Assembly: GCF_020509005.1 (NCBI RefSeq)
Contig: NC_063014.1
Location: forward strand, 4,650,001-4,714,000
Reading direction: 5' to 3'
Length of the DNA stretch: 64,000 nucleotides
Source: Fulvia fulva
Lineage: Eukaryota; Ascomycota; Dothideomycetes; Mycosphaerellales; Mycosphaerellaceae
Shown: piece by piece, positions 28,553 through 60,296 of the stretch
Numbering within the stretch: the stretch's first letter is position 1
How the letters are laid out: each line of letters begins with the position of its first letter
The notes under the pieces: generated by a model
The model's database searches: none
Told to the model about the DNA's origin: nothing
What the model saw: only the letters and a program-made list of their open reading frames with translations
Translations under genes and position numbers: made by a program

Positions 28553-29954
28553 TCAAATCCTCTCCGCCTCCAAAATTGGCCTCGCCTCCTCACTCTTCCA
28601 CCAGCTCACGCCCTCCTTACCAGGAAACTCATACCGATCCATGCTATCCGACTTCATCTCGACAGAGTAGCCAGCATTCATCGGGGTAGTGTAGTACCCA
28701 TCCTTGATCACAGCAGGGTGCAAGAAATGCTCATGCAGATGATCCACATACTCCAGCACCGACAGCTTGCCACTCACGACGACATAGTCGATGGTGCTAA
28801 GATGCTGCGTATACTCTGGCAACCCCACACCACCAGAATGCGGTACAATCGGCACGCCGTACTTCCTGGCTATGAGCAGGACAGCGAGAACTTCGTTGAC
28901 ACCACCCATCCGGCAGGCGTCGATCTGACATACGTCGATGGCGCCTTGCTGGATGAGTTGTTTGAAAATGACACGGTTTTGGCACATTTCACCGGTTGCC
29001 ACGCCAATGTTGAGAGGCTTGAGAGCATCGCGTATCGCTTTGTGCCCGAAGACGTCGTCTGGCGAGGTGGGCTCTTCGATGAACCAGGGCTTGAACTCTG
29101 CTAGCTCTTTCATGTACTCGATTGCTTCAGGGACACTCCAGACTTGGTTCGCATCAACCATCAGGACGTTGTCCTTGTCGTAGCCGATCACATCCCGGGC
29201 GGTCCGCAGACGCTGCTTGTCTTGCTCGAGGGACGTGCCGACTTTAAGCTTGAAGTGTCGGTAACCTTGGCTGACGGTCTCTTGTAGAAGAGACTTCATC
29301 TTATCTTCGCCGTACCCTAACCAGCCGGCAGATGTGGTGTATGCCGGCACTGCACGGTGTTCAAGTGCTTCCTGCCGGCGCTGTGCTTTTGTTGGTTCTT
29401 GCTCTTTCAGCAACTGCACCGCTTCCTCTGGTGTGATGGCGTCCGTGATGTAGCGGAAGTCTATGCACTTTACAACCTCCTCTGGAGTCATGTCTGCTAC
29501 AATCCGCCAGACCGGCTTGTCCAGAACTTTGGCCCAGAGATCCCAGATTCCGTTGACCAATGCTCCCAATGCGAGGTGTATGACGCCTTTTTCGGGCCCG
29601 ATCCAGCGAAGGTGGGAGTCTGAGACTAGATAGCGCCAGGTCTTGCCCCAGTCCTCGACGAACGACTCCAATGTTCTGCCCTTCACGCGCTCACCGAGGA
29701 GTGCAATGGCTTGACAGACGAGCTCGTTGCCGCGGCCAATTGTGAAGGTCATGCCGTGGCCCTCATGATCAGAATCAGTGCGGAGGATGCAGTAGGCGGC
29801 GGAGTAATCCCCAGCGGCGTTCATAGCATCGCTGCCGGTCTTGTCGAGGGACGTCTGGTGTGGTGGTTAGGTATGAGGTCGGGCTGCTGGGGTGATAAGT
29901 TCTGCTCACTGGAAACCTGACATCTCTTGTTGTTACTCCTGTGATGGTGACCAT
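28553..29954 (-). CDS. lgd1: L-galactonate dehydratase (enolase superfamily), one intron
   Basis: The enzyme converts L-galactonate to 2-keto-3-deoxy-L-galactonate, the second step of fungal D-galacturonate catabolism, probably in the cytosol. The model has exon 1 at 29954-29910 (15 codons, beginning MVTITGVTTRDVRFP), a 55-bp intron at 29909-29855 (GTGAGC donor, CTAAC branch site, CAG acceptor) and exon 2 at 29854-28553, giving 448 residues. The usual fungal N-terminus (VTITG...DVRFPTSLDKTGSDAMNAAGDYS) is only recovered with this exon. Visible enolase-superfamily features: KLK base motif at about 217-219, metal ligands D249 (MVDANQ), E275/E276 (FIEEPTSPDD) and E304 (ATGEMCQNR), and the PHSGG block with H354. 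Length and motifs fit LGD1/GaaB. The related bacterial L-fuconate dehydratase family is the alternative. No RIP damage is seen. It is divergent from ATP23. Confidence 0.93.
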
Positions 29955-30641
29955 CTTGCTGCTCTACGTTATGTGTTCTTGCTCGTGTGAGGATGATAGG
30001 AAAGCGAAGATGTGTTGTGACGAACGATCTGCTCAACTCAACTTCTTGCTATGATGGACAGGGACATGTGAAGTTAAGCAATGCCAATACAGTCTGCATC
30101 GGACCGGGAGTCCACTGGCGAAGATGGATCGCGGGAAAGGTATATACGATATACGAGAAGCTGGTTCCTGAGGTTCCATTGGCGGAAGTGCGAGCAGGAA
30201 GAGGCAGGTGGCAAGGTGGTACTGTCGGCGTTTGGGGGTCAGCATGGTAGTTCTAGTTCTATCCGTGATCGCTGCAAGACTTCATCCGGCCGATTTAGCC
30301 GTTTGCTTGGGGAGCACGATATGCCATCATTACCACGGATGTGACCCAAGGCCACGATACGGTGACCGTCGTGGATGCTGTAGCATAATGAGATGCACAT
30401 GACGGGAGTCAGTGAGGGACGAAGTGCGGTACATGTAGAGGTTGAAGATGAGTAGAGTGTACTGTGTGTGCATGGACGTGTTTCAGATCCCTCGGCGAGA
30501 CCATCACCGAGCCTCGGAGCATCGTCGGCAGTGAATCTCGAACTTCGAGCATTGTCATTGTCATTGTCATCAAGCATTCCAGTGTAGCACTGCTCTTCCT
30601 GTCCGTCCCTACCACGACCGATTGCATCTCTCTCCGCCACC
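29955..30641. promoter_or_regulatory. Divergent intergenic promoter region
   Basis: 687 bp separate the start codons of lgd1 (minus) and ATP23 (plus), so both promoters lie here. Base composition is normal. A short TCATTG repeat (three units) lies near 30554-30572. I see no further gene; open frames here are short and overlapping. Confidence 0.6.
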
Positions 30642-31355
30642 ATGACCGAACGATCCTCCATCCCCCCATCCCCCTCACCATCACCCGACGCCGCCAACGA
30701 CAACACCTTCCGGACGTGGTCCAACTTCTTCTCCATCCTTACTGGCCGCGCAGACCAGACCACAAAGCAATCATACTTCCACGAACGCGACATCCAGAAC
30801 GAAGCAGCCGACATTGCCCGCGCCGAAGAAGACGTCAAATGGCTCTTCAAAGCGTCCCCCATCATAACCTTCCTCAAACACAACATCGACATCCTGGGCC
30901 CAGCCGATGGCAGCGCATCGATAGGACCGCACAACGTGAGATGTAGACGCTGCGACACCCAGCAATCAGGCGGCTTCTCCCCCGAGCACGGAATACTTCT
31001 TTGCGCAAACCAATTCCGCAATCGCGGACACTTGGAAGATACGTTGGCGCACGAGATGGTGCATGCGTACGATTACATGAGGTTCAAGATCGATCCCTTG
31101 GACTTGAGACATGCCGCGTGTATGGAGATTCGGGCGAGCACATTGAGCGGGGAGTGTAGGTTTGGGAGGGAGTTCTTTACTCGAGCGCAGTTTGGCATCA
31201 CGCAGCAGTTGCAGGAGTGTGTGAGGAGAAGAGCGGCGATCAGTGTGGCGAATCGGCCTGCGTGTAAGGATGATGTGCAGGCAGTGAGGGTGGTGAATGA
31301 GGTCTGGGACAGTTGCTTCAATGATACGAGGCCGTTTGATGAGATCTACAAGTGA
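30642..31355 (+). CDS. ATP23: Mitochondrial inner membrane protease ATP23 (peptidase M76)
   Basis: Metalloprotease of the mitochondrial intermembrane space, which in yeast matures subunit 6 of ATP synthase and assists F0 assembly. The single exon gives 237 residues. The start ATG lies in a good context (CCGCCACCATGA). The zinc-site motif HEMVH is at residues 137-141 and is followed by AYD. The family's cysteines are present: C101 and C104 (CRRC), C121, then C150, C162, C193, C208 and C225. Such Cys-rich ATP23 proteins are imported and oxidised by Mia40 in yeast. An N-terminal Ser/Pro-rich stretch of about 20 residues is fungal-variable. Length matches the family (about 230-260). No mutation damage is visible, although RIP-mutated DNA starts within 1 kb downstream. 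Confidence 0.94.
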   Translation: MTERSSIPPSPSPSPDAANDNTFRTWSNFFSILTGRADQTTKQSYFHERDIQNEAADIARAEEDVKWLFKASPIITFLKHNIDILGPADGSASIGPHNVRCRRCDTQQSGGFSPEHGILLCANQFRNRGHLEDTLAHEMVHAYDYMRFKIDPLDLRHAACMEIRASTLSGECRFGREFFTRAQFGITQQLQECVRRRAAISVANRPACKDDVQAVRVVNEVWDSCFNDTRPFDEIYK

Positions 31356-49843: not shown

Positions 49844-50600
49844 CACTAGCGTCGGCACGACGCACTTCCGAGCCTTCGCAAAACGCCCGAGCTCGCTGAG
49901 GTAACCTGTACCAGCTCCACCCTCCCCATCAATTCCCCGGACCCCAGCTAGCCAATCGGACCCCAGTGACCCATCAAGCTCCCAATCAAGTTCCATTAAA
50001 TGTTGACAGTCTTGCACGTCGCCGTTACGCCTCGGGGAGGGCACATCGGCGGCGCCCTTACCCCTGCCTAATGAGGGCCCCCCCTCCCACTCGTTGCCGG
50101 CTCGAGTGCGCGGAAAAGATAGATTCTAAGCGGTTTTCAAGGTGTAGCTTAGAGTTGTAGTAGCAAAAGCTCAATTCATATAAGCGGTAAATAATAGGGT
50201 TCGGTCGGCTAGCTAGGGTCCGGTAAAGTGGTTAGGCTCTACCCTACTTAAGACGTTCCTTTAGAGTTGACCTTATTAAAGCTATTAGACGACAGACTAG
50301 CTTTCTAAGAGTACTCGAGCCGCTAATAGGCCTAACACCCCTACTTTTTATCTCCTCAGATCCCTACTACGAATACTTAATAACTGCCGTAGGATAGATC
50401 CCTATTACTAACATAATACTACGATATAAAGAGAGGGATCCCTTACCTTCCGTCGAAAGGCCGATTCTATAATTACTATCTAAGCACTTCTAGATTTAGC
50501 TATCGGCCGTTACTTCCTATACTTACAGTGACCGCGCTCGAGCTTTCTTTATATCCTCTCCAGATATTATACACAACCTACTACTACTACAACTACTACT
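49844..50600. promoter_or_regulatory. Upstream region of the small secreted protein gene
   Basis: 49844-50100 has ordinary composition. From about 50110 to 50550 the sequence is RIP-like (TpA-rich, CpA/TpG-poor) and holds no gene. A run of CTACTACTAC-type repeats lies directly before the ATG. If the small gene is expressed, its promoter is in this mutated DNA. Confidence 0.45.
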
Positions 50601-50941
50601 ATGCGTCTTCCTTGGGCTTACCAGATTCCTCTGACTATTTTTCTTGCAATACCTGGAGGTTTCTGCATAGATGCCTCCCGCCCGGCCTGGACTAATCCTG
50701 AAGGAGACTCGACCCCTATCAAGTTAACGCCGCCACCAGGCTATCACCAATTCTGTGTAAGTAAAGGCTAATAGAAATGCTTTCTACACATACGTTCGAA
50801 CGGCTAAGATATAACTAGGGCAACATGATTCATCAGGGTGGTGTGCAAACGTTTGAGTTCTCAATATACCGAGGACAATGTACCTTGGTTCCTTCAACAC
50901 CGTGCCCTCCAATGGGGAACGTTTTGTTATGCAAGTCATAG
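50601..50941 (+). CDS. Candidate small secreted cysteine-containing protein, two exons
   Basis: Exon 1 is 50601-50756 (52 codons), the intron is 50757-50836 (80 bp, GTAAGT donor, CTAAG or TAACT branch-like site, CAG acceptor) and exon 2 is 50837-50941 (34 codons, TAG), giving 86 residues. The start MRLPWAYQIPLTIFLAIPGG has the basic, hydrophobic, small-residue layout of a signal peptide with cleavage near residues 22-27. Mature cysteines are C52, C67, C75 and C84. I recognise no family. After the stop, another frame reads on with protein-like text (RYSMFARDQCCGYPPVGAG at about 50948-51004), so exon 2 may carry a frameshift that shortened a longer protein. It lies between RIP-mutated DNA and a Helitron, a common place for effector genes in plant-pathogenic fungi. 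The function is inferred from layout only. Confidence 0.5.
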
Positions 50942-51342
50942 GACGCCGCTACAGTATGTTTGCGCGAGATCAATGCTGTGGATACCCTCCTGTGGGCGCA
51001 GGCATAGGGAGGCGAGTTCTTCAGCCCAGGCGAGAGCAGTCTTAGGAGATGGGGGGGCGAAGGTCCTGTGAAGATGTTAGTAGGGCCCTTCGGGGTTGTC
51101 GTGGCCATTAGCCTAGCATCGTTAGAGGATGTACATCATAAAATGTATCCCGATGGCACCGCGTTGCTAATGGAGTGAGCGGAGGGTGCCACCCGGAGCG
51201 ACAATACAGATCTCAATTATGTGAACATGTTGAAGTCAACACTATGTAACGCGATACGATATGTCCAATCCGGATCAACTACCCAGTTAGTCTATGAACG
51301 CCTACCCCTTTACATTCGTCATCCATCAACGCCCACTCTATA
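50942..51342. other. Region between the small gene and the Helitron ORF
   Basis: It contains the possible frame-shifted tail of the small gene (to about 51020). Non-coding DNA follows, in which the Helitron 3' terminus should lie. A duplicated ATTCGTCATCCATC occurs at about 51313 and 51344. I could not fix a CTRR-type end or its hairpin. Confidence 0.4.
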
Positions 51343-54300
51343 TTATTCGTCATCCATCTTCACTGAGCACATCGACTACTGTTGATTGCAGTTCTTATTC
51401 TGTGGCTGTTCGCTTGCCTGGGTGGGCGCTTGTGTCTGCTGAGTAGGCTAGGGCAGCTGATTACCATCATCCATCGATATGTCTGGCTAGATCTAGTGTC
51501 GATCAATGTCCTCAATTGCTGACCTATATCGTGTTGCAAGCTGGTCAACCGTGAAGTGACCCCACTAAGGGTTGTCAGGTGTACTCATGTAGTATGCAGC
51601 TCGAAGCTCTTCCTCTGAGAATCCAGTGCCCTAGCGGACTGCACGTTGAATTATAGACCGAAGCTCGCCCTCAGTAGCTGGCATAGGCTCGCCATCCGAG
51701 AGTGTACGATGCACAGGATCTAGGGCTCCATGTAGGAAGCGAGAGCGCTGATGTTGTAGTATAGCAGCCACGGCTTCATCAATCGAGTCCTGCATCTGCT
51801 GGGCATACTGTCTCTGGCGCTCGTCTTCAGCTTCTCTCTCCATGATGCGAACTTGAGCAGGACTCAACGACCTCATACGCGAGACTCTCTGGCGCTCGGC
51901 TTCCGCTCGCTCGGCTTCCTCTCGCTCGGCTTGCGCTCGACGATGAGCAGCATCAATAGCTGCTATCTGAGCAGTAAGCTCTGTGCCGTCGATACTGTAT
52001 TCTTCTTGGAGTCGAAGTGCGTACTCACGATCTGCAGAAGTCTGCGTCTCTCGAGCACGCTGCTTAGCGGCAAGAGCAATGGCAGCTCGAATCTCTTGCT
52101 GGCGGCGGACCTTCTCGATCTTATTAAGAGACTTCGGGTGCTCTAGATGTGGCGGCGTCGATGACATCTCTCCGCCTTCGACCATAATACGCTATAGGCG
52201 GCGACGATTCTTATCACCCCAGCGTTGAATAGCAAGCGACGATGGCTTGCCCTTGAAGCGATCGAATGAGAATGGCTCTTCAAACATAATGTCCTGTAAG
52301 CTGCGTACTCGTGACATTGCGACGTAAGTGAGCCCTGGGGAAAAGTCCTTCGTGATGTTGAGAACGACCTTAGGCAAGGTCATGCCCTGACTCTTGTAAA
52401 TAATGATGGCGTACGCGATTGTAAGAGGGAACTGGGTCCGGCTGCACATGCCGTCCTTGCCACGCATCTTGTAATTGTGTCGCACTGGAAAGATAGGGAC
52501 CACCCGAGGCGGAAGTCCTGCGCCAGGGAAGTGCTGCGTGTCGTCCAAAGTCGGGCCATCGTACTGATCCAGCTCAACCAAGATAGCTGCTGGCAGGAGG
52601 TCTAGAATCTCGTCGTTGTTTCTGCCATCGAGTGGATTGCTAGTCTAAACAACACCTCGGACAGTACCAAGTGAGCCGTTAACTACGCCTTTCTCAACCT
52701 ATAGGTTCTGCGTAATCATGACTCGACTGCCAATGCATAGAGGGAAAGCCTTGTGAAGATTGCTACCCATGTCGTAGGTAGCAGATGAGGCATTGCTTCC
52801 AGTATGCTTGGCCTCGATGATTCTCACTAGATTGTTTAGGCGAAGAAGGGCCTGCTGGTTATAGGCGTTCACCTTGGCCTTGGTAGCATAGATGCGGAGC
52901 GCAGTATCGAACTCACGCTGCTGTTGGGCTGTAAGCTTCATACTTACACGAGTGACGAGTAGCTGCCACTGCTCGAGGGTGAGGTTGCCAGGACCAGCAC
53001 GGACTGCACCTAGAACTTGGCGGAAGGCATCACCAGTTGGATCATCCTCTGTACGGCGCTGAATGGTCTTTAGTTTTAGCGTAGTAGAGAAGGACGTCCA
53101 CAGCTGACGACCAGTAGCTTCTTCGGCAGTACGCAGACCATCCTTGACGTATACAGCATTGCCACTGACGGGCGGTAACTACCAGAAGTCGCCGATCATG
53201 ATAATTAAGAAGCCGCCAAATTCGATGTTCTTGTCTCCAACCTGACGAAGACGTCGATTAATCCAAGAGAGCATCATCAGGTTGACTATTGACTTCTTAT
53301 TAATGACGATGTAGACGACACCCTGCATGAATATCTCAAAATCGCGGAGTCCCGTGCCATCAAGTGGGACATACTGACCTATATTGATTGGCAGACGGAG
53401 AGCCGAATAGATAGTGTACCCACAAATGCCGTGAGCGGCGAGTCCAGTAGGTGCAAGTCGCAACACAGGATTACCATGGAACATAGGCTCGCGGACTTGC
53501 TCGCCATTCTCATCGAACAACGGCAGGCCAGCCATGTTATACATTGGCTTGCCCGATGCTGCGCGGAACTCTAGCTCAGAAGACACGTAGCGAATAAGGT
53601 ACGACTTGCCAACGCCCGCTTAACCATCGGTGTTGACACGTATCGGAGCTGGCCTTGGATGTGGATTGTCAGGGCTGTCAAACTCGCTGAGAACGAGAGC
53701 CTTGAAATGATCTATAACCTTACCAGCGAGTGTTTGCTGCTCTGGTGACATTCCATCCAGCACAGCTTGGGCAGCAGCGCTATTAGGGGCCCAGCCGTAT
53801 GCTAAGCGCTTAATAAAGTCTCCACGTAGATCTTTCCACCAATCTGTAGGCATATCTCCTGGGTGGAAGCCGTACATGCCGATATGAGAAGCCCAGTTAT
53901 ATGCATCAATCTCGCGGGTTCCAAGACCTTCGAGAGCCGCCGCTGATGCACGAGTAGGCAGTTGGTTGGCGATAAGTGCAAAACCTGGGTTCTCAACAGA
54001 CTCGGGGTGGAATTCTTCCTCGAATTCGGAATCAACAGGCGCATCGAGTGAGAACCCATAGTAATCATCTAGATGATTCCACTCATCATGATACGACAGC
54101 TGCTGCTCTTCGTCCGAATCGCTCTCCTCGTGCTGCACAGGCGGGTCCGGTACTTCGTGGACGTGAGCAGTGCGGCAGTACGCTAATGCATCGGCGTACG
54201 TGTCGAATGCGAGTACCTCTTCATCATCCTGAGAATCTTCAAGGCTCTCGGAGAATATGTACGGCAGGCTGGGGTACTTGCCATGGAAGGCATGATGAAA

Positions 54301-57300
54301 GCAGATCTCCGCCCGGGCATACTGCTCGTACGTCTCGCTGCCTGGGACTGGGCTGTAGCGTGGAAAGTAATTAATGACGCGAGTCTTCGCCTAAGGGCGC
54401 GGACGTAGCAAAGCAAAGTCCCACCGAATAAGCCAGTCGTAGAGGGTGCAATCGATGACCTCCTGTAGTCGCTCCATGTGCTGTTCGTCGTGTTCATCGT
54501 CCTTGTTGACTTCAGTGAACCGAGACACGCGGCCCATGTACTTCTGGAGAGATGACTGGCCAAAGGGAACCATCTGTCCAGAAGTCTGGTCGAATCTCAG
54601 CGCAGTACGCTGGTCACCTGGCTCCCTACAATCGAAGGAGATGATAGTGCGTGTACTGTTGGTCATCGGCAGCTTCAGCAAGACATAGCACACCTCTTGA
54701 GCTCCAACATCGCGCTCACCAACTAATTGATTCAACATCTTAGCCGTGAAGGACACCATTAGGTTGACATGGCTGACCTTCGGCAGCACCTTGGTCGCGA
54801 TCTGAGTGAAGCTTTCTGTCGGTACTTCCTGCTTGCTGACATACTTGGCCAAATAATTGACAGTAGCCCCAATATTTGTGCATAGAGTGATGTCGGTGTT
54901 GCCCATCCAGCCAAGACTGTTTAGACGATTCCACTGGTTCATGCGGTCGTCGTTACGTGGGCTATCGTACATGTCATGCGATGCATTAATCGCCCGAGTA
55001 ATAATAGCTTCGTACGGGTATAGCGGACGAGGGTAGTGGAAGCGGCATTGACGGGTCTTGGTGACTCTGTTGAAGCGCTCACAGTACTTGTAGGTACAGT
55101 TGTGGCGTTGAACGCGGTTGACAATGAGCATTAGCTGGTAAAGATTGTTCTCACGCTGATCGTGCGGCAAGGACAGTATAGCAGGCTCTCCAGGTTCTGG
55201 TCCGGATCGCTAAGGAAGTGGATTGCTAGCAGTAATGTGCTTGCTCCAGAAATTCGTCATTGCTGCACTCTGCGCCGGTGTGGACGTCGCGGGCTCTGGT
55301 GCAAGCAGTCCGGGAGTGTGTGCGTCCTTTAGCCAGACCAACTTGTGGCAATGTACACTGCCGCGCATCTTAGAATTCAAATCGCTCCCATGAGTCATTA
55401 ATGCCCAAGATCGGCTCCATGACCATCTTAGTGAAGCCAGTGTAACGGTGGTAAAAGCTGTACGTAGCGATGTGTGGGTTATCGCGGACGTTCTCCTTCG
55501 CTAGCCGCATGCGCTGATCCTCCGTCAGATCTGGCGTAGGCGGGTTGGGCATATAGCGGTGAAGGTCATGAGTATAGTAGTCCGGTGCACTGTATGTCAT
55601 GAATGTAGTAGGGCAATCCAGGAAGTGTACGGTGTTCTGCAGCTGATTGCCCTTGCATCTCCAGTAGGCGCGTGTGCCACGCAAAGTGTTGCCCTAGCGG
55701 ACAACGGCATTCAGTAGACGCTGGCCATCAAGATCATCGTCATCACCTTCTAGGGCCGCACGGAGATCCTCGACGGTGATGTTTTGATACTGATTGTTGG
55801 CACGCACAAAGTGCTTCGACTTCGCCATCGACTGACGTCGCATAAGCATGTTGTAAGCGACGTAGCGAAAGCGAGGGTGTTGCGCAAAGCGTCCATCTTG
55901 GTACTTCATCATATGGTCGATGTAGTCGTCAAAATTGACCTTGCGCTGTCGCAGGGGCTCTACGAAGTCTGCCTCACCGCATGGATACAGCGACGGGAAC
56001 GCTCTAGACAGCAATGGATATGAGCTGTTAAACTCATCCAGCGGCATCGTGTGAAACTTAGGCATAGTGAAATGGCGTTGCTGCTGAAGCTGTTAAGACT
56101 GAGACGACTGAAGATCATCGAAGTCTCCTGACAGCAGTAGGGGTGGTGACGATGTTCCGTCAAGCTGCGATATGTCGCTGAACTGGGCATATTGCTGAGC
56201 CTCTGCAGCAGCGGCGGTCCGCGTTCGGTTCTCGAGCTGCTGAGCATCATATTGCTCGACAACTTCGCGCATAGCGTCAAGCTGCTTCTGTCCATACTGT
56301 ACTCCAGGAATGCAACCGTGCGTGATCTCATACTCGTCATCCTCACCGGCTGGTTCTTCTGTAGTATGATTATCGCTGAGACTTGGCTCAATCACATCGG
56401 TGCGCTAGTTTTAGGAGGTGTTCATTGCTGGGACCTCATCGTTATCGCCATCCATAGCAGATGTGTTGCATAGTCCCATCTCCAGCACGTTGCCATCTTC
56501 GGGTAGTTCGCGGATGCGGTCGGGGTTAATAACCACATCTCTGTACAGCGGATGTCGATTCTTGAGGTGGTCAAGCCACTTAGCAACAACGGCACATCGG
56601 ACTGTGAACTCGCGAGCGAACATGCGGCCTTGAGCCTGATCGGTCTCTGATGGACGAAGGATAACGTCGGTGACCTCTGTAGGGATCAACGGCAGCTCCT
56701 TGTATACACGACCAACCTCGCGGAGGAAGTGAATCACATTGCCTTTGTACTTGTGCTGGCCAAGGGGTCCACCAACAACCCAAGTTGTGCAGAACACATG
56801 TACGATTGCGATAAGCTGTTCCTCAATCTGCGTGATAGCTGGTAGATCCCAAGCAGCTGGGCCAAGGCTTGGGTTCATGTGATTTGCCGCGGACATAAGG
56901 AAGGGATCTCCCAAGCCCTTCGCACTATCGCGACCGTGACGACAACGCTTGCAGACCTGGTGCTGATCCGATGGCTCGAAGGCATCAGCCATCTGCGCAT
57001 CTCCATCAATGTCGTCAGGCTCATGACCGGCATCGTAGATAAGCTGCATGTTGAACCACCGCTCGAAGCAGCGCATACATGTTTCCATCTTCTGCTTCTA
57101 CATAGCGGCAAGCCACTTCTGGATAAGCTTCCAGTACGCAGGGTGAACCGCTTCTTGTGTCTCGAGGAGTTGCCGAGACATAGGTCCAGGTGGGAATGGC
57201 AGCTCAGGTGGCGCATCTCGTAGGAACAGGTCACGCAGCTCTTCAAGCCCACGCTGTGCAGTCTCACGAGCTCGTGGGCCTGACTTTCGAGTAGCAGGCG

Positions 57301-59815: not shown

Positions 59816-60118
59816 GTTCGATTGCCGTATCGTCGTCTCTTTTTGTCGCATAATGGCACGGTGTGACAGTGTTTCTCGTGATCTGATTGGCTGTGGCTAT
59901 CTACCTCCATGGACGCCGTAACACTGCTACGAACAGGCTCGTTTCTTGCCGTTTGATCGTTAGCCAATAGGGGTGCGAGAAACACCTTGCACATACCGCC
60001 AGCACACCCTGCAGCAGGACGCTGTCGCTATCGTTGTCCTTGGTATCCACCTCCATTGTATATATGTCCGTCGCGTCCACTGCTGCTAGTGGTTGTGATC
60101 GTTCGTCCGGCTCGGGCG

Positions 60119-60220
60119 CAATCTGTTTCCTGTCGCAATCTGTTTCCTGTCGCAATCCGTTTCCTGTCGCAATCTGTTTCCTGTCGCAATCTGTTTCCTG
60201 TCGCAATCTGTTTCCTGTCG
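60119..60220. repeat. 17-bp minisatellite, six units
   Basis: CAATCTGTTTCCTGTCG is repeated six times with one variant base (CCGTTTCC in unit 3), followed by a decayed unit. A further copy starts near 60387. Open frames on both strands here only reflect a period without stops. Confidence 0.95.
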
Positions 60221-60296
60221 CAGTCTTCTGTTCCTGTTGCAACACACCCCTTAGGTTATTCTATCTCTTTTCTGCCACTGCTGCTTCTGCCGCCGC

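What the first reader, a model, noticed from the sequence alone, without database searches (positions are those of the whole stretch)
50601..50941. Unlisted small secreted protein gene beside RIP-mutated DNA
A signal-peptide-like start, a clean 80-bp GT-AG intron with kept phase, and four mature cysteines in 86 residues make an effector-like protein that long-ORF searches miss. Its upstream region is RIP-like and its downstream neighbour is a Helitron. A protein-like continuation in another frame after the stop (RYSMFARDQCCGYPPVGAG) suggests it may be a shortened allele of a longer Cys-rich protein.
Basis: partly seen in the sequence, partly recalled or inferred. Interest (0 to 1): 0.75.

Follow-up and report, generated by a model that had tools for sequence, protein, structure and literature searches.

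The report
Known tomato leaf mould effector gene

Summary
The finding is a real gene, but not an unlisted one. It is Ecp24-1 of Fulvia fulva (Cladosporium fulvum, tomato leaf mould; UniRef A0A9Q8LDQ0), 92 residues, whose two exons match the window letter for letter. The acceptor is at 50818, not 50836: intron 62 nt, protein 92, not 86, residues. Searches of the genome (67.17 Mb, 14 contigs) found one relative, Ecp24-2, 2.37 Mb away on the same contig. It has the same acceptor and ends at the matching stop, so the 'shortened allele' idea fails for this gene. RIP-like DNA upstream and a degenerate Helitron downstream are confirmed. One less ordinary point: between the copies, flanks and intron are 86-87% identical, exon 1 is 72% and exon 2 51%. 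Replacement sites differ 2.8 times as often as noncoding sites, yet dN/dS is 0.90 because synonymous sites changed too. That suggests accelerated, block-wise change of the mature protein; gene conversion of the flanks or exon replacement is not excluded. No usable fold, no Pfam domain and no relative outside F. fulva was found.

The parts
50601..50756 (+). Exon 1 of Ecp24-1 (codons 1-52, signal-peptide-like start)
   Evidence: identical to residues 1-52 of the deposited protein
50757..50818 (+). Intron, 62 nt, GTAAGT...CTAG
   Evidence: gap between the two exact exon matches; same length and splice sites in the sister copy
50819..50941 (+). Exon 2 of Ecp24-1 (codons 53-92) with stop
   Evidence: identical to residues 53-92 of the deposited protein; stop shared with the sister copy
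50819..50836 (+).
   Evidence: in the deposited protein
50260..50600 (+). 5' part of the duplicated unit, RIP-like
   Evidence: 86.8% identical to the sister unit; RIP composite 1.59 here and 1.91 in the sister
50942..51151 (+). 3' part of the duplicated unit, non-coding
52195..57097 (-). Neighbouring degenerate Helitron (not part of the gene)
   Evidence: PIF1, Helitron_like_N and DUF6570 pieces in different open frames

Best explanation
The locus is the gene Ecp24-1 of the tomato leaf mould fungus Fulvia fulva: two exons, a 62-nt intron, 92 residues. Shown: identity with the deposited protein, gene structure, one diverged sister copy (Ecp24-2), RIP-like 5' flank, Helitron neighbour. Inferred from the name (extracellular protein), the signal-peptide-like start and the cysteines: the protein is secreted into the tomato apoplast, held together by disulfide bonds, and acts there as a small non-enzymatic effector, most likely by binding a host extracellular protein or shielding the fungus. 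Inferred from comparing the two copies: after an old duplication of a roughly 0.9-kb unit the mature protein changed fast while leader, intron and flanks changed slowly, as expected if a host target or receptor drives change.
For: Exact match of both exons to Ecp24-1. Sister copy with the same gene structure and stop, deposited as Ecp24-2. Genome size and contig number as reported for F. fulva Race 5 (PMC9453070, passages). Mismatches 43/156 in exon 1 and 60/123 in exon 2 against 83/612 in flanks plus intron. 36 of 92 codon pairs differ at two or three bases where 4.6 are expected at the noncoding rate. First 22 codons less changed (pN 0.18) than the rest (pN 0.44).
Against: No expression, secretion or plant-response data were seen here for Ecp24-1. 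dN/dS is 0.90 (bootstrap 0.54-1.48), not above 1, because synonymous sites are raised too. No Pfam domain; the only single-stretch PDB match of note is an O-methyltransferase (E 5.6e-4 with the whole protein; 0.048 with exon 2 and i-Evalue 1.9 for its best stretch), judged chance. The predicted fold is unusable (pLDDT 39). Searches for Ecp24 in open papers found none.
Confidence: 0.88

Rival explanations
1. One reading: acceptor at 50836, 80-nt intron, 86 residues, as main product or minor isoform. The two acceptors are 18 nt apart and both keep the frame.
For: CAG|G at 50836 is a plausible acceptor and keeps the phase.
Against: The deposited protein uses 50818; the sister copy shares CTAG|GG there and has no AG at the match of 50836.
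Confidence: 0.04
2. The gene is a shortened allele of a longer cysteine-rich protein whose tail lies after the stop in another frame.
For: The 34 residues after the stop look protein-like, and a similar stretch is in the sister copy.
Against: The sister gene stops at the homologous position. The downstream DNA is 86% identical overall; the named frame gives dN/dS 1.37 with one stop in each copy within 102 nt, and the 3' gaps are 7, 1 and 2 nt.
Confidence: 0.02
3. (Not exclusive with the best explanation.) The exon/flank contrast is not selection on the protein: gene conversion or shared constraint kept flanks and intron alike, or the exons were partly replaced by recombination with a third copy that is now lost.
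For: Synonymous sites in the exons are also more changed than noncoding DNA (25.3 of 62.5 sites against 79 of 580; Fisher p 1.2e-6). Changes come in blocks. Transitions:transversions 37:69 in exons against 54:25 in noncoding DNA.
Against: Synonymous change in codons with an unchanged residue is 8 of 29.7 sites, not clearly above noncoding (p 0.059). Two exons either side of a conserved intron would need two separate replacements. No third copy was found in this genome.
Confidence: 0.35
4. Chance open frame in decayed repeat DNA, no gene.
For: The region is repeat-rich and RIP-like upstream.
Against: Exact database protein; splice sites, frame-keeping indels and stop shared with a diverged copy.
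Confidence: 0.01

Closest known systems
Ecp24-1 of Fulvia fulva (A0A9Q8LDQ0_PASFU)
   Same: identical in all 92 residues to the window's two exons
Ecp24-2 of Fulvia fulva (KAK4630169.1; record of 77 aa)
   Same: sister gene with the same structure; 30 of 52 aligned residues identical in exon 1 (58%) and 14 of 40 in exon 2 (35%, alignment); cysteines in similar places
   Different: the deposited record ends after 77 residues; in this genome the open frame runs to 100 residues with three more cysteines
Other Ecp/Avr effectors of F. fulva (such as Ecp20-2, Ecp36)
   Same: class and naming scheme: small secreted proteins of this fungus. Ecp20-2 is required for full virulence (title of PMC9294515, listing); Ecp36 inhibits the tomato subtilase P69B (abstract passage of PMC10533508)
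   Different: not compared with them directly; the two region searches returned only the Ecp24 records

Membership tests
Ecp24 (F. fulva extracellular protein 24) | identity with the deposited Ecp24-1 protein over its full length | tested here: met
   both exons identical to P0007, 92 of 92 residues
Ecp24 (F. fulva extracellular protein 24) | found in apoplastic fluid or induced in planta (basis of the Ecp name, as I recall it) | not testable with these tools
   the 2018 source paper is not held; held papers describe the Ecp set as a whole (passages)
fungal small secreted cysteine-rich effector (class) | shorter than 250 aa, secreted, at least 2% cysteine, no membrane span or GPI anchor (one of the rules in PMC9453070) | tested here: inconclusive
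   92 aa with five cysteines, 5.4%; hydrophobic start reached by 7 of 209 comparable ATGs, itself included; no signal-peptide, membrane-span or anchor predictor available
fungal small secreted cysteine-rich effector (class) | effect on the host plant | not tested
   needs plant experiments
any Pfam domain or structurally known effector fold | significant profile or structure match | tested here: not met
   no Pfam family. PDB by sequence: designed 'Pizza' repeat proteins with no single stretch passing, an O-methyltransferase at E 5.6e-4 that falls to i-Evalue 1.9 for its best stretch with exon 2, ClpP at 0.077. Fold model pLDDT 39, so no fold search was run
Helitron (neighbour) | Helitron_like_N and PIF1 helicase domains | tested here: met
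   PF14214 in 55697-56092 and PF05970 in 53182-53619, - strand, in separate open frames; element ends not established

The most novel reading that the evidence does not exclude
The Ecp24 pair is a compact case of exon-limited hyperdivergence in a fungal effector: a duplicated 0.9-kb unit in which promoter, intron and 3' flank, and to a lesser degree the leader, stay alike while the mature protein is rewritten in blocks, with cysteines and a few short motifs kept. The pattern recalls venom toxin families (from memory, not tested). One member may also exist in a shortened form in another isolate.
Probability: 0.35. Interest if true: 0.45.

Novelty: already known. Interest (0 to 1): 0.25.

Why it matters
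Showing that the gene is the deposited Ecp24-1 stops it from being re-reported, corrects the splice site and removes the shortened-allele idea. The comparison with its sister copy adds a small testable point: the coding parts of this effector pair have diverged far more than their noncoding surroundings, so the pair may help to show which parts of such orphan effectors are driven to change by the host.

Tried and rejected
Homologue search with exon 1 alone found nothing, probably because that search takes no protein over 1.75 times the query (91 aa) and the true one has 92. Repeating it with the longer open frames and a region setting found the Ecp24-2 and Ecp24-1 records. Pfam on the exons and on the two records: none. 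PDB by sequence: repeat-driven or chance matches. Rfam at gathering scores and tRNA scans of the window: none. Plasmid collection: none. Structure prediction from two sequences: pLDDT 39.1, pTM 0.26, so no fold search was run. A third family member in the genome: not found by DNA or by exon 1 protein; exon 2 of the sister finds only itself, so it is too diverged to find even Ecp24-1 by protein. The genome tool scores only its best candidates, so this is not proof of absence. Flank searches found further places only for neighbouring repeats. Literature: 0 papers for 'Cladosporium fulvum' with 'Ecp24' and 0 for 'Ecp24-1'; two narrow searches for the exon/noncoding contrast gave 0 papers, which says little.

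Full report
What was checked. The window is C3:4650001-4714000 of a genome of 67,169,167 bases in 14 contigs. The published F. fulva Race 5 assembly has 67.17 Mb in 14 chromosomes (PMC9453070, passages), and both protein records found are from Fulvia fulva. That the genome is this isolate's is an inference from these facts.

Gene model. The database protein P0007, Ecp24-1, has 92 residues; its first 52 equal the translation of 50601-50756 and the other 40 that of 50819-50938. The intron is therefore 50757-50818, 62 nt.

Sister copy. DNA searches of the own genome with the gene region and with the sister unit each gave two places: the window (50260-51151) and C3:2330950-2331896, 2.37 Mb away. 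Exon 1 as protein found the same two. The sister keeps the ATG, the donor, an intron of 62 nt, the CTAG|GG acceptor and the stop; its exon indels are 15 and 9 nt. It is deposited as Ecp24-2 with 77 residues, identical to the first 77 of the 100 residues that are open in this genome. Whether the shorter record is a different allele or an annotation choice was not tested.

Not a shortened allele. The sister ends at the homologous stop. Downstream DNA is 86% identical. I see no sign of a lost coding tail.

Rate contrast. Identity in a whole-unit alignment: 5' flank 86.8%, exon 1 72.4%, intron 85.5%, exon 2 51.2% (stop included), 3' flank 86.1%. Sliding the mismatch track round the unit, 5 of 891 rotations, the unshifted one included, reach the observed exon/noncoding difference (neighbouring rotations are not independent). 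By codon counts 80.7 of 213.5 replacement sites and 25.3 of 62.5 synonymous sites differ, against 79 of 580 noncoding sites (Fisher p 7e-13 and 1.2e-6). dN/dS is thus 0.90 (bootstrap 0.54-1.48; 68% of 2000 resamples at or below 1), which alone is no evidence of positive selection. In the 44 codons with an unchanged residue, 8 of 29.7 synonymous sites differ (p 0.059 against noncoding), while 35 of the 48 replaced codons differ at two or three bases. Changes sit in blocks, with many transversions (37 transitions, 69 transversions; noncoding 54 and 25), which does not look like RIP. Fast change of the mature protein is the reading I prefer; conversion of the flanks or exon replacement is not excluded. 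Exon 2 is so diverged that its alignment, and hence its counts, are uncertain.

Surroundings. The RIP composite is positive 5' of the gene in both copies (1.59 and 1.91) and negative in both exons of both; the 3' flank is -0.37 here and 0.53 in the sister, and the 62-nt intron (1.62 and 0.33) is too short to judge. Left of the duplicated unit lies a MITE-like repeat, right of it a degenerate Helitron on the minus strand. Ordinary genes stand further off.

Relatives and function. Each of the two region searches of about 5.8 billion proteins returned one protein, Ecp24-2 for the sister and Ecp24-1 for the window. The method needs shared five-residue words, so distant relatives may be missed. No Pfam domain, no credible solved relative (the O-methyltransferase at E 5.6e-4 is the strongest single-stretch match and I judge it chance, since its best stretch has i-Evalue 1.9) and no usable model. 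PMC9294515 (passages) says that more than 50 Ecp genes are induced in planta and that nine caused a hypersensitive response in wild tomato; whether Ecp24-1 was among those tested was not seen.

Verdict.

Noticed in passing
L002 1526-1890 (G000 C3:2331315-2331679): Sister gene Ecp24-2: open for 100 residues here, but the database record has 77 and lacks the last three cysteines.
   Followed up: partly
49923-50239: About 316-bp repeat with roughly 36-bp terminal inverted repeats; five copies compared, 85-92% identical, on contigs C1, C3, C5 (two) and C13: MITE-like.
   Followed up: partly
51138-51208: A 71-bp stretch also found on contigs C7 and C13 (84-85%), starting near the end of the duplicated unit; may be a mobile-element end.
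   Followed up: partly
52195-57097 (-): Degenerate Helitron with DUF6570, Helitron_like_N and PIF1 pieces in different open frames.
   Followed up: partly
60117-60226: 17-bp tandem repeat, 6.5 copies, 96% matches, some 600 bp before a DUF6604 open frame.
   Followed up: no
28553-31355: Island of two ordinary genes (enolase-superfamily protein; peptidase M76) at about 54% GC between RIP-like stretches of about 41% GC.
   Followed up: no
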